The notes beneath the pieces were generated by a model. That model saw only the letters and a list, made by a program, of their open reading frames with translations, ran no database searches and had not been told where the DNA came from. This document shows, piece by piece, positions 29,859 to 32,688 of a DNA stretch of 54,523 nucleotides; positions within the stretch are counted from its first letter, which is position 1; each line of letters begins with the position of its first letter. Location: NCBI GenBank assembly GCA_947453415.1, contig CANGGG010000011.1:1-54523 (forward strand), given 5' to 3'. Source of the stretch: Bacteroidota bacterium (GTDB lineage Bacteria > Bacteroidota > Bacteroidia > UKL13-3). The translations under genes were made by a program, and so were the position numbers.

Positions 29859-29874
29859 GTTTTTATTGTTAGTA

Positions 29875-29919
29875 CAAATGTAGCAATAAGCTTTTCATTG
29901 CTTGGTTACTTTTGTTACA
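29875..29919 (-). promoter_or_regulatory. Crp/Fnr-type site A with -7 box, upstream of the seven-gene sulfur operon
   Basis: On the minus strand TGTAACAAAAGTAACC (29919-29904) is followed after 21 bp by TACATTTG (29882-29875), an exact TAnnTTTG. The right half-site is the weakest of the three sites. Confidence 0.65.
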
Positions 29920-29933
29920 TAATGAAATAAATT

Positions 29934-30527
29934 TTATTTTATGCCAACATATCTTATCACTTCTGCATTTCCATGGTGATATTTTCCTTCATTTAAAACA
30001 ATTGATTCCATGCTTAAAATTTTAGTTGTAAGGTTTTTAAAATCATGTTCAATGATTTCTTTTGTATACAACATAGAAACCTCTTTTGGACCGAAAGAGG
30101 AATTATTTAGTTGCAACGGATTAAATACTTCCAAAATTATACTTCCACCAGGTTTAAGCCAAGTCATTATTTTGGCATGAAATTGAATTCGTACTTGTTC
30201 TGGAAAATGAGCATAAATTATTGCAATGGCATCAAAACTTTCTGGTTCAAATTTTATTTCCAACGCATCGGCTATGCTATAATTAATAGTTACTTGGTTT
30301 TGCTTAGCTAATAAATTTGCTTTTTCAAAACCAGCGTCACTAAAATCAAATGCTGTTACATTCCAACCATTTTGCGCAGCATATACTGCATTTCTACCTT
30401 CGCCTTCGCATGGTAAAAGTATGTTTCCTTTTGGAAGTTTTTCTATTTGTTCTTTTAAAAATTCGTTAGGTAAAATGCCGTAAGCAAAATCTTTTTCAGC
30501 GTATCGTTGGTTCCAAGTTTGGTTCAT
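29934..30527 (-). CDS. Class I SAM-dependent methyltransferase (TehB/TPMT-like)
   Basis: 197 residues. Starts MNQTWNQRYAEKDFAYGILPN, then motif I ILLPCEGEGRNAVYAAQNGW and DAIAIIYAHFPEQVR. This arrangement is typical of small methyltransferases related to TehB and thiopurine S-methyltransferases, which act on thiol, selenium or tellurium compounds. Location in the sulfur island suggests a thiol or sulfide substrate; that is inference. It is separated from the upstream DUF2892 gene by a terminator and has no visible site of the shared type. Confidence 0.85.
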   Translation of the reverse strand: MNQTWNQRYAEKDFAYGILPNEFLKEQIEKLPKGNILLPCEGEGRNAVYAAQNGWNVTAFDFSDAGFEKANLLAKQNQVTINYSIADALEIKFEPESFDAIAIIYAHFPEQVRIQFHAKIMTWLKPGGSIILEVFNPLQLNNSSFGPKEVSMLYTKEIIEHDFKNLTTKILSMESIVLNEGKYHHGNAEVIRYVGIK

Positions 30528-30548
30528 ATAATTTAATTGATTTAGATT

Positions 30549-30592
30549 TAAAAAAAATATAACAGCTCTACAATTTATGTAAAGCTGTTATA
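30549..30592 (-). terminator. Terminator of the DUF2892 gene
   Basis: TATAACAGCT and AGCTGTTATA are perfect 10-bp arms around 15 bases; on the minus strand a long U-tract follows. Confidence 0.75.
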
Positions 30593-30622
30593 AATAAGAT
30601 TGGTTTTAAAAATGATAAATTC

Positions 30623-30829
30623 TTAGCTTTCTTTTTTCTTGGTAGAAATGCCAAATGGCAAGTACAAAGGGCAAAAACTCATAAAACTTGTAGCAATAAA
30701 AATGACTGCTACAGCCATTAAAATAATGGCTACAGTTCCTGTAATTTGTCCCATAAAATAAAGAACACCAATTAAAATGGCTGCAAGTATTCTTACTACT
30801 TTGTCAGCGGTTCCCATGTTTGCTTTCAT
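30623..30829 (-). CDS. DUF2892 family small membrane protein
   Basis: 68 residues, two helices (ILAAILIGVLYFMGQI and VAIILMAVAVIFIATSF) then FCPLYLPFGIST. The opening MGTADKVVRI is the family hallmark. A second DUF2892 member in the same island; single-gene unit with its own regulatory site and terminator. Confidence 0.87.
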   Translation of the reverse strand: MKANMGTADKVVRILAAILIGVLYFMGQITGTVAIILMAVAVIFIATSFMSFCPLYLPFGISTKKKES

Positions 30830-30866
30830 TTTTTTATTTTTTTTTAAAGTGAATTTTTTTTCTATA

Positions 30867-30911
30867 CAATGGTATGCTATTTTAAATAATAATTATGTCA
30901 CATTTGTTACA
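30867..30911 (-). promoter_or_regulatory. Crp/Fnr-type site B with -7 box, upstream of the DUF2892 gene
   Basis: Minus-strand TGTAACAAATGTGACA (30911-30896) lies in a longer palindrome, TTATGTnACAnnTGTnACATAA. After 21 bp comes TACCATTG (30874-30867), one mismatch from TAnnTTTG. Confidence 0.7.
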
Positions 30912-30921
30912 TAATTATCTA

Positions 30922-32619
30922 TTATATAATAGCCATTTGATTTGTTTTCATTGCTAAATTATTGCTTTCAGCAATTTCATTGGTACAATTTTTCCAAAGT
31001 TGGTATCCACCCGATAAATTTTCGGTATTAAACCCATGTTGTTTTAATATTTGCTGCGCCAAATATCCTCTTTGCCCGCCAAGGCAATAAATATAAATCT
31101 TTTGGTTTTTATCCAACTCATTTATCCTTTCCCTTATTGAATCTAGCGGAATATTCAAAGCATTTGGAATATGGCCAGCTTCAAACTCTGAAATTGTTCT
31201 TACATCTAATAAAATATCGGTTTCAGTTATGTTTTCAATATTATTCCAATAATATATTTTATGCTTTTTAAGCAATATGTTTTCTGCCACAAATGCTGCA
31301 ATATTTACAGGATCTTTTGCCGATGAAAATGGAGGCGCGTAAGCATGTTCAAACTCCAATAATTCATAAATTGTACTCTTTCTTTTTATTGCCGATGACA
31401 GTATGTCAATGCGTTTATCTACTCCATCAAATCCCGCTATTTGCGCACTTAATAATTGACCATCGATAGGAGAAAATGCTATTTGAATACTCATTTGTTT
31501 AGCACCAGGATAGTAGCCAGCATGTGAACCATTATGCGTGGTAGAAACGAGGTGTTCAATATTAGCATTGCTTAAATTTTTGGATGCCGTTCCGGCAATA
31601 GCTACCGTCATATCAAACACTTTTACAATGGCAGTATTGATAGCACCATTATATTTTTTTTTATTTCCAAGCACTATATTATCCGCACAAATACGCCCTT
31701 GTTTATTGGCAGGGCCAGCCAAATAAGTATTCATAGATTGGTTGGTAATAGGATTTGTAAATTCTATGGCATCGCCCACGGCATATATATCAGGATTGGA
31801 AGTTTGCAAAAACTCATTTACCCAAATTCCTTTTGCCGCTCCCAAACTTATTCCTGCATGAACAGCCAAACGTGTATCGGGCTTAACACCTATTGACATG
31901 ATGACCACATCGGCATCTAGGGCTTCTCCCGATTTCAATAATACCTTTAGCTGATTATTATGTTTTTCAAATCCTGTAACTGCCGAACTCAATAATAAAT
32001 TTACCCCTTTTTCCCTTATATGTTGCTGAACAATGGCAGCAATAGGAAAATCTAAAGGTGCTAATATTTGATTACCCATTTCTATAATAGAAACATCTAA
32101 ACCTAAGTCGTGCAGATTTTCGGCCATTTCTAATCCAATAAATCCTGCACCAATAACCACCGCTTTTTTTACCTGTTTTTGGTTTACAAAAGCCTTAATA
32201 TAATCGGTGTCGGCTACATTTCTAAGGGTGAAAATCCCTTCGTTAGTTATACCAGGTAAAGGCGGACGAATAGGTTCGGCACCGGGTGATAATACTAACT
32301 TGTCGTATGTTTCATTGTAAGTTTTTCCGCTAGTTTGGTTAAAAGCTGTAACCGTTTTTGTATCAACATTAATAGCTATTACTTCAGTTAAAGTTCTTAC
32401 ATCAATATTGAATCGTTGGTTAAATGAAGCTGCTGTTTGAACAAACAATGCATTTCTATCTTTTATTACATTTCCAATATAATATGGCAAACCACAATTT
32501 GCGTAAGAAATATATTCCCCTTTTTCAAAAATTACAATTTCCGCATGTTCGTCTAATCTTCTTAATCTTGCAGCTGTGCTAGCACCACCCGCAACTGCTC
32601 CTATAACTATGTATTTCAT
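30922..32619 (-). CDS. CoA-disulfide reductase / persulfide reductase with C-terminal rhodanese (CoADR-RHD)
   Basis: 565 residues from ATG 32619. FAD-binding GAVAGGASTAARLRRL, active C42 in YISYANCGLPYYIG (the single-cysteine redox site of this family), NAD(P)H-binding VVIGAGFIGLEMAE, and a C-terminal rhodanese with cysteine in YIYCLGGQRGYLA. Such enzymes reduce CoA disulfide, CoA persulfide or polysulfide with NAD(P)H. A TTG at 32646 would extend the frame but lies inside the -7 box, so it cannot be the start if that promoter is right. Confidence 0.95.
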   Translation of the reverse strand: MKYIVIGAVAGGASTAARLRRLDEHAEIVIFEKGEYISYANCGLPYYIGNVIKDRNALFVQTAASFNQRFNIDVRTLTEVIAINVDTKTVTAFNQTSGKTYNETYDKLVLSPGAEPIRPPLPGITNEGIFTLRNVADTDYIKAFVNQKQVKKAVVIGAGFIGLEMAENLHDLGLDVSIIEMGNQILAPLDFPIAAIVQQHIREKGVNLLLSSAVTGFEKHNNQLKVLLKSGEALDADVVIMSIGVKPDTRLAVHAGISLGAAKGIWVNEFLQTSNPDIYAVGDAIEFTNPITNQSMNTYLAGPANKQGRICADNIVLGNKKKYNGAINTAIVKVFDMTVAIAGTASKNLSNANIEHLVSTTHNGSHAGYYPGAKQMSIQIAFSPIDGQLLSAQIAGFDGVDKRIDILSSAIKRKSTIYELLEFEHAYAPPFSSAKDPVNIAAFVAENILLKKHKIYYWNNIENITETDILLDVRTISEFEAGHIPNALNIPLDSIRERINELDKNQKIYIYCLGGQRGYLAQQILKQHGFNTENLSGGYQLWKNCTNEIAESNNLAMKTNQMAII

Positions 32620-32643
32620 TTTTTTAGTATATTTTTTATAATG

Positions 32644-32688
32644 CAAAATTAAGCCTTCTATTAATGGTGCTTTGCAACAATTGTTACA
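32644..32688 (-). promoter_or_regulatory. Crp/Fnr-type site C with -7 box, upstream of the CoA-disulfide reductase gene
   Basis: Minus-strand TGTAACAATTGTTGCA (32688-32673) is a near-perfect palindrome. After 21 bp comes TAATTTTG (32651-32644), an exact TAnnTTTG. Centre of the site is near -41 from the predicted start, the class II activator position. Confidence 0.75.

What the first reader, a model, noticed from the sequence alone, without database searches (positions are those of the whole stretch)
29875..32688. Three sulfur-island promoters share a Crp/Fnr-type operator at identical spacing
Upstream of the seven-gene operon, the DUF2892 gene and the CoA-disulfide reductase gene I find TGTAACAAAAGTAACC, TGTAACAAATGTGACA and TGTAACAATTGTTGCA, consensus TGTAACnnnnGTTACA. 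Each is followed after exactly 21 bp by a -7 box: TACATTTG, TACCATTG, TAATTTTG. The box at site A was predicted from the spacing of the other two and was there. Site centres fall near -41, the class II activator position known for Crp/Fnr proteins. The regulator is not in the window; a persulfide-, redox- or oxygen-responsive Crp/Fnr member is inference.
Basis: partly seen in the sequence, partly recalled or inferred. Interest (0 to 1): 0.82.

Follow-up and report, generated by a model that had tools for sequence, protein, structure and literature searches.

The report
Crp-type regulon controlling sulfur-detox islands
Three neighbouring promoters in a Bacteroidota genome carry the same activator-binding site at exactly the right distance from the start signal, and relatives show that the missing activator is probably a small Crp/Fnr-family protein that normally sits beside the same sulfur-handling genes, pointing to an apparently undescribed phylum-wide switch for sulfane-sulfur metabolism.

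Summary
Three minus-strand operators (29904-29919, 30896-30911, 32673-32688) each lie exactly 21 bp upstream of a Bacteroidota -7 box. With the published -12/-5 position of that box, all are centred at -41.5. In the 2.89 Mb genome the composite pattern occurs four times: these three plus one in a minisatellite; the reversed control gives 0. The bare 16-mer is not enriched; the composite is.

Its relatives sit beside the same sulfur island in 72 of 80 Bacteroidota loci. Of 88 operators upstream of island genes, 81 have the box at exactly 21 bp. In 395 genomes across the phylum, 74 of 116 exact pattern hits lie within 4 kb of rhodanese, MBL-rhodanese, TauE or YeeE genes. The core GTA-N8-TAC is NtcA's consensus, and the recognition helix resembles NtcA's.

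Best reading: a class II Crp-family activator of sulfane-sulfur handling. In this species the regulator gene is separated from its island. Oxygen sensing by an FNR cluster is unlikely (one invariant cysteine, Cys75). Persulfide sensing is inferred, not shown. No paper in the held library describes it.

The parts
29904..29919 (-). Operator A, TGTAACAAAAGTAACC, centred at predicted -41.5 of the seven-gene operon
   Evidence: conserved unchanged in G039, G040, G043 and in variant form in G037
29875..29882 (-). -7 box A, TACATTTG; predicted start of transcription 29870
   Evidence: box position from PMC9723704
27451..29858 (-). Seven-gene operon: DUF6132, HMA domain, rhodanese, rhodanese, 82-aa protein without a Pfam match, thioredoxin, rhodanese-thioredoxin
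30896..30911 (-). Operator B, TGTAACAAATGTGACA, in front of the DUF2892 gene
30867..30874 (-). -7 box B, TACCATTG (one base off consensus); predicted start 30862
29934..30829 (-). DUF2892 (YgaP-like membrane) gene 30623-30829 and methyltransferase gene 29934-30527, probably one transcript
   Evidence: same order in relatives
32673..32688 (-). Operator C, TGTAACAATTGTTGCA, in front of the CoA-disulfide reductase gene
32644..32651 (-). -7 box C, TAATTTTG; predicted start 32639
30922..32619 (-). CoA-disulfide-reductase-like protein with C-terminal rhodanese domain, ATG at 32619
   Evidence: TIGR03385 467.8 bits, below its cut-off of 578.8

Best explanation
The three sites are class II operators, centred at -41.5, of one Crp/Fnr-family activator: the 207-aa protein on contig C35 of the same genome (G000:C35:29748-30371). 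A dimer binds TGTAAC-N4-GTTACA (core GTA-N8-TAC) just upstream of the -7 box, stands in for a -33 element, contacts sigma-A RNA polymerase and co-induces three transcripts: CoA-disulfide reductase/rhodanese; DUF2892 with the methyltransferase; and the DUF6132-HMA-rhodanese-rhodanese-82 aa-thioredoxin-rhodanese/thioredoxin operon. Together these handle sulfane sulfur. In most relatives the regulator gene heads the island; here a rearrangement has left it beside its old neighbour, a beta-eliminating lyase gene. Shown: site architecture, genome specificity, conservation, synteny. Inferred: binding by this protein, activation rather than repression, and the signal, most likely sulfane sulfur or persulfide acting through invariant Cys75.
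For: Composite pattern unique to this island in the genome apart from one minisatellite hit, reversed control 0. In G037 the 87%-identical Crp gene and three operators lie within 5 kb. 72 of 80 loci found by the Crp protein alone hold island genes and 66 hold operator plus box. 81 of 88 operators in front of island genes have the box at exactly 21 bp. 72 left-arm sites in 26 kb of island upstream DNA against 0 in 118 kb upstream of other genes in the same loci. DNA-only scan of 395 genomes: 74 of 116 exact hits within 4 kb of rhodanese, MBL-rhodanese, TauE or YeeE genes. 21-bp site in 30 of 48 relatives with the Crp subfamily, 1 of 16 without. Core and helix match NtcA, a class II activator. 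The lyase beside the displaced Crp gene is 89% identical to the lyase beside the island-linked Crp gene of G037.
Against: No binding, expression or transcription-start data. In this species the regulator is unlinked, so its assignment rests on relatives. Seven loci with island genes show no operator by my criteria, and G036, G044 and G009 lack strict hits although the Crp gene is there. Some phylum hits precede other genes (TolC-like, hybrid-cluster protein, cytochrome bd), so related regulators may share the motif.
Confidence: 0.85

Rival explanations
1. The operators are bound by another Crp/Fnr protein of the genome, such as the cysteine-rich FNR-like protein on C28, making this an oxygen-responsive regulon.
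For: The genome has three other Crp/Fnr proteins; the C28 protein has several N-terminal cysteines and its best NCBIfam match is FNR.
Against: It is the C35 subfamily whose relatives adjoin the island and its operators. The other three have FNR-like E-T-[LV]-I-R recognition helices, and FNR sites are TTGAT-N4-ATCAA (own knowledge), not TGTAAC-N4-GTTACA.
Confidence: 0.07
2. The C35 protein binds these sites but acts as a repressor, released by sulfur species.
For: Crp/Fnr proteins can repress, and known sulfane-sulfur regulators such as CstR, SqrR/BigR and sHdrR are repressors.
Against: Fixed 21-bp spacing and -41.5 centring in 81 of 88 promoters is the class II activator geometry; repressor sites usually overlap the box or vary in position.
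Confidence: 0.1
3. The regulator senses something other than sulfane sulfur: a nucleotide, redox state, nitric oxide or disulfide stress.
For: Crp folds bind many ligands; some phylum hits precede hybrid-cluster-protein and cytochrome bd genes; the signal was not tested.
Against: The most widely shared targets are rhodaneses, MBL-rhodanese proteins and TauE/YeeE transporters; the NCBIfam CRP model scores far below cut-off; an invariant cysteine fits thiol chemistry.
Confidence: 0.4
4. Chance resemblance of AT-rich promoter DNA.
For: The bare 16-mer within 2 mismatches is no more frequent than its reversed control.
Against: The composite is absent from 300 simulations and from the reversed control of the genome and is conserved at exact spacing across the phylum.
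Confidence: 0.01

Closest known systems
NtcA of cyanobacteria (Crp family, GTAN8TAC at -41.5)
   Same: Core GTA-N8-TAC, class II position, recognition helix R-V-x-V-[ST]-R; second-best solved relative by sequence
   Different: Only 42.7 bits against the NtcA model cut-off of 244.95; controls nitrogen genes in response to 2-oxoglutarate; different phylum
E. coli cAMP-CRP class II promoters
   Same: Crp fold, operator centre -41.5, half-site TGTAA resembles TGTGA
   Different: 48.8 bits against a cut-off of 266; cAMP-binding Arg82 seems missing by eye; different targets
FNR and FNR-like oxygen sensors
   Same: Crp/Fnr superfamily, class II activation
   Different: One invariant cysteine instead of four, different recognition helix and half-site
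Persulfide regulators CstR, SqrR/BigR, FisR
   Same: Control comparable sulfide/persulfide genes (rhodanese, persulfide dioxygenase, TauE)
   Different: CsoR, ArsR and sigma-54-activator folds, not Crp; other operators
3dv8, Crp/Fnr protein of Eubacterium rectale (PDB)
   Same: Closest solved sequence, E 1.3e-18
   Different: Firmicute protein; the record seen here states no function

Membership tests
Crp/Fnr superfamily (the regulator) | C-terminal Crp-type helix-turn-helix | tested here: met
   PF13545 over cut-off, 41.2 bits against 27
Crp/Fnr superfamily (the regulator) | Cyclic-nucleotide-binding-like beta fold, long dimer helix, HTH | tested here: met
   Model pLDDT 83.9; Foldseek best match CAP of Thermus thermophilus, E 6e-16
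Class II Crp-type promoter | Operator centred at -41.5 with fixed distance to the core promoter box | tested here: met
   21 bp in all three and in 81 of 88 homologous promoters; -41.5 from the published box position
Class II Crp-type promoter | Mapped transcription start at the predicted base | not testable with these tools
   No RNA data
NtcA | GTAN8TAC operator | tested here: met
   Left-arm GTA in all three sites; full GTA-N8-TAC in many relatives. In the window the right arm is GTAACC, GTGACA or GTTGCA, so TAC is met only loosely
NtcA | NtcA protein family membership | tested here: not met
   42.7 bits against 244.95
cAMP-CRP | CRP protein family membership | tested here: not met
   48.8 bits against 266
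FNR | Four conserved cysteines for a [4Fe-4S] cluster | tested here: not met
   Only Cys75 invariant in 38 sequences; Cys157 in 22 of 38
Persulfide-sensing regulators | Change in DNA binding on persulfidation or polysulfide | not testable with these tools
   Invariant Cys75 and sulfur targets are only suggestive

The most novel reading that the evidence does not exclude
A Crp/Fnr subfamily widespread in Bacteroidota senses sulfane sulfur or persulfide through one invariant cysteine (Cys75), probably near the former cyclic-nucleotide pocket, and activates the phylum's MBL-rhodanese (persulfide-dioxygenase-like), rhodanese and TauE/YeeE islands from class II sites: a Crp-fold persulfide activator, unlike the CsoR, ArsR and sigma-54 systems known elsewhere.
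Probability: 0.45. Interest if true: 0.75.

Novelty: new variant of a known kind. Interest (0 to 1): 0.62.

Why it matters
Bacteroidota carry sulfane-sulfur islands in many habitats, but I found nothing on their regulation in the literature searched. This finding supplies a candidate regulator, a precise operator, a predicted transcription start for each promoter and named cultured species in which to test it. If the signal is persulfide, it adds a Crp-fold sensor to a field built on CsoR, ArsR and FisR proteins.

Tried and rejected
(1) The operator 16-mer alone as a genome scan: not enriched over its reversed control, dropped. (2) The fourth strict hit, on C67, lies in a tandem-repeat array between a TolC-like and a RecN-like gene: spurious. 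(3) The C2:96440 one-mismatch hit is antisense inside a CcoNO oxidase gene, and the same sequence recurs in relatives: spurious. (4) The C3:65532 one-mismatch hit before a DsbD-like gene (TGTAATATTTGTTACA-21-TACATTTG) has perfect geometry but decays in two close relatives and was not found in most others: left open. (5) The idea that loss of CRP's Glu181 explains TGTAA against TGTGA was weakened: the G046/G047 regulators keep R-E-V-I-S-R yet have TGTAAC sites. (7) A literature search for CAP Glu-181 found nothing held.

Full report
CHECK. The three sites are in the sequence as described, all on the minus strand: operators at 29919-29904, 30911-30896 and 32688-32673, each followed by exactly 21 bp and an 8-base -7 box. 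In Flavobacterium the sigma-A box TAnnTTTG occupies -12 to -5 (PMC9723704), which puts all three operators at -41.5 and the starts at 29870, 30862 and 32639. The genes are those stated: the seven-gene operon (DUF6132, HMA, two rhodaneses, an 82-aa protein without a Pfam match, thioredoxin, rhodanese-thioredoxin), a YgaP-like DUF2892 protein with a methyltransferase gene behind it, and a CoA-disulfide-reductase-like protein with a rhodanese domain.

CHANCE. The operator alone would not stand: within 2 mismatches it is no commoner in the genome than its reversed control. The composite does stand. The pattern TGTNACNNNNGTNRCN-(20 to 22)-TANNNTTG has four hits in 2.89 Mb, three being these and one in a minisatellite, with 0 for the reversed control. 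Three hundred Markov simulations of the window gave none.

REGULATOR. The genome holds four Crp/Fnr proteins. The 207-aa one on C35 is the candidate. Searching 64 genomes of the order with this protein and, separately, with the DNA pattern put protein and operators on the same contigs. In G037 the Crp gene and three operators matching ours lie within 5 kb. Eighty GTDB loci of Bacteroidota, found with the protein family alone, show a recurring order: Crp, DUF2892, TauE, MBL-rhodanese, DUF6132, HMA, rhodanese, rhodanese, YgaP-like, thioredoxin, rhodanese-thioredoxin. Seventy-two hold island genes and 66 hold operator plus box. In our species the Crp gene is not beside the island but follows a beta-eliminating lyase gene that is 89% identical to the one preceding Crp in G037. 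The simplest reading is that regulator and island were separated by a rearrangement in this lineage.

ARCHITECTURE. Of 88 TGTAACNNNNGT sites upstream of island genes, 81 have .AnnTTTG at exactly 21 bp; 20 bp and 22 bp occur once each. TGTAAC and GT are invariant there because the search demanded them; the box and the C at operator position 15 were not demanded. Upstream DNA of other genes in the same loci (118 kb) has no such site, against 72 in 26 kb of island upstream DNA. Spacers diverge (pairwise identity 0.33 to 0.43) while the box stays (0.72 to 1.0). In 64 relatives the distinct composite hits number 49 at 21 bp (44 without a recurring oxidase coding sequence), 9 at 20 bp and 14 at 22 bp. 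A DNA-only scan of 395 genomes of the phylum gave hits in 69. I read the surroundings of all listed hits outside our own genome: 74 of 116 lie within 4 kb of rhodanese, MBL-rhodanese, TauE or YeeE genes, many directly in front of one. Relatives with the Crp subfamily have a 21-bp site in 30 of 48 cases, those without in 1 of 16 (Fisher p 9e-5); the genomes are not independent lineages, and the lists were compiled by hand.

MECHANISM. The best reading is a class II activator. The core GTA-N8-TAC at -41.5 is that of NtcA (PMC3898017), and the recognition helix R-V-V-V-S-R resembles NtcA's R-V-T-V-T-R. The other three Crp/Fnr proteins of the genome have FNR-like E-T-[LV]-I-R helices. The model is a Crp fold (mean pLDDT 83.9). 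One cysteine, Cys75, is invariant in 38 sequences. It lies just before the helix after the conserved GE, where CRP holds the cyclic-nucleotide phosphate (placed by eye, as the automatic alignment is gapped there). This argues against an FNR cluster and would suit a thiol sensor of sulfane sulfur; that step is inference. Targets (rhodaneses, MBL-rhodanese proteins in relatives, TauE and YeeE transporters, CoA-disulfide reductase) fit sulfane-sulfur handling.

LIMITS. G036, G044 and G009 have the linked Crp gene but no strict hit, and seven of the 80 loci have island genes without an operator by my criteria; variant or lost sites are both possible. Some hits elsewhere in the phylum precede TolC-like, SulP, hybrid-cluster-protein or cytochrome bd genes, so the regulon may be wider or related regulators may share the motif.

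NOVELTY. Known persulfide regulators belong to the CsoR, ArsR and FisR types (own knowledge; PMC7315123 for FisR and BigR, which also reports a persulfidated CRP-like protein of Acinetobacter with unknown effect). I found no paper in the held library on a Crp/Fnr regulator of such islands. Subscription papers and regulon databases were not available, so the motif may be listed elsewhere. I file it as a new variant of a known kind: a Crp/Fnr class II regulon with an NtcA-like operator and a sulfur role.

Noticed in passing
L202 3533-3576 (G000:C3:65532-65576, minus strand): A one-mismatch operator with exact 21-bp spacing precedes a DsbD-like thiol-disulfide interchange gene; it is degraded in two close relatives and was not found in most others, so it is doubtful as a fourth regulon member.
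   Followed up: partly
L208, L220, L230, L237, L289: The same operator-box composite precedes a TolC-like outer-membrane gene in several genomes of one family, in L237 and L289 with a Crp gene of the same subfamily within 4 kb.
   Followed up: no
L241, L242, L276; L261, L263: Composite hits precede genes that look by eye like SulP-type anion transporters and hybrid-cluster proteins, suggesting a wider regulon or a related regulator.
   Followed up: no
L204-L206 (G332:C1:2630000-2682000): Nine composite hits and two Crp genes of the subfamily (71% and 38% identity) within about 45 kb of sulfur genes, a possible model locus for two parallel regulators.
   Followed up: partly
L004 1430-1680 (G000:C67): Imprecise tandem-repeat array containing TAACGTAAATCGGTATTTAG-like units between a TolC-like and a RecN-like gene; source of the only non-island strict hit.
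   Followed up: no
L007 and L200 (G000:C35): The Crp gene follows a tryptophanase-like beta-eliminating lyase gene both here and in G037; such lyases can release sulfide from cysteine (own knowledge), a possible functional link.
   Followed up: partly
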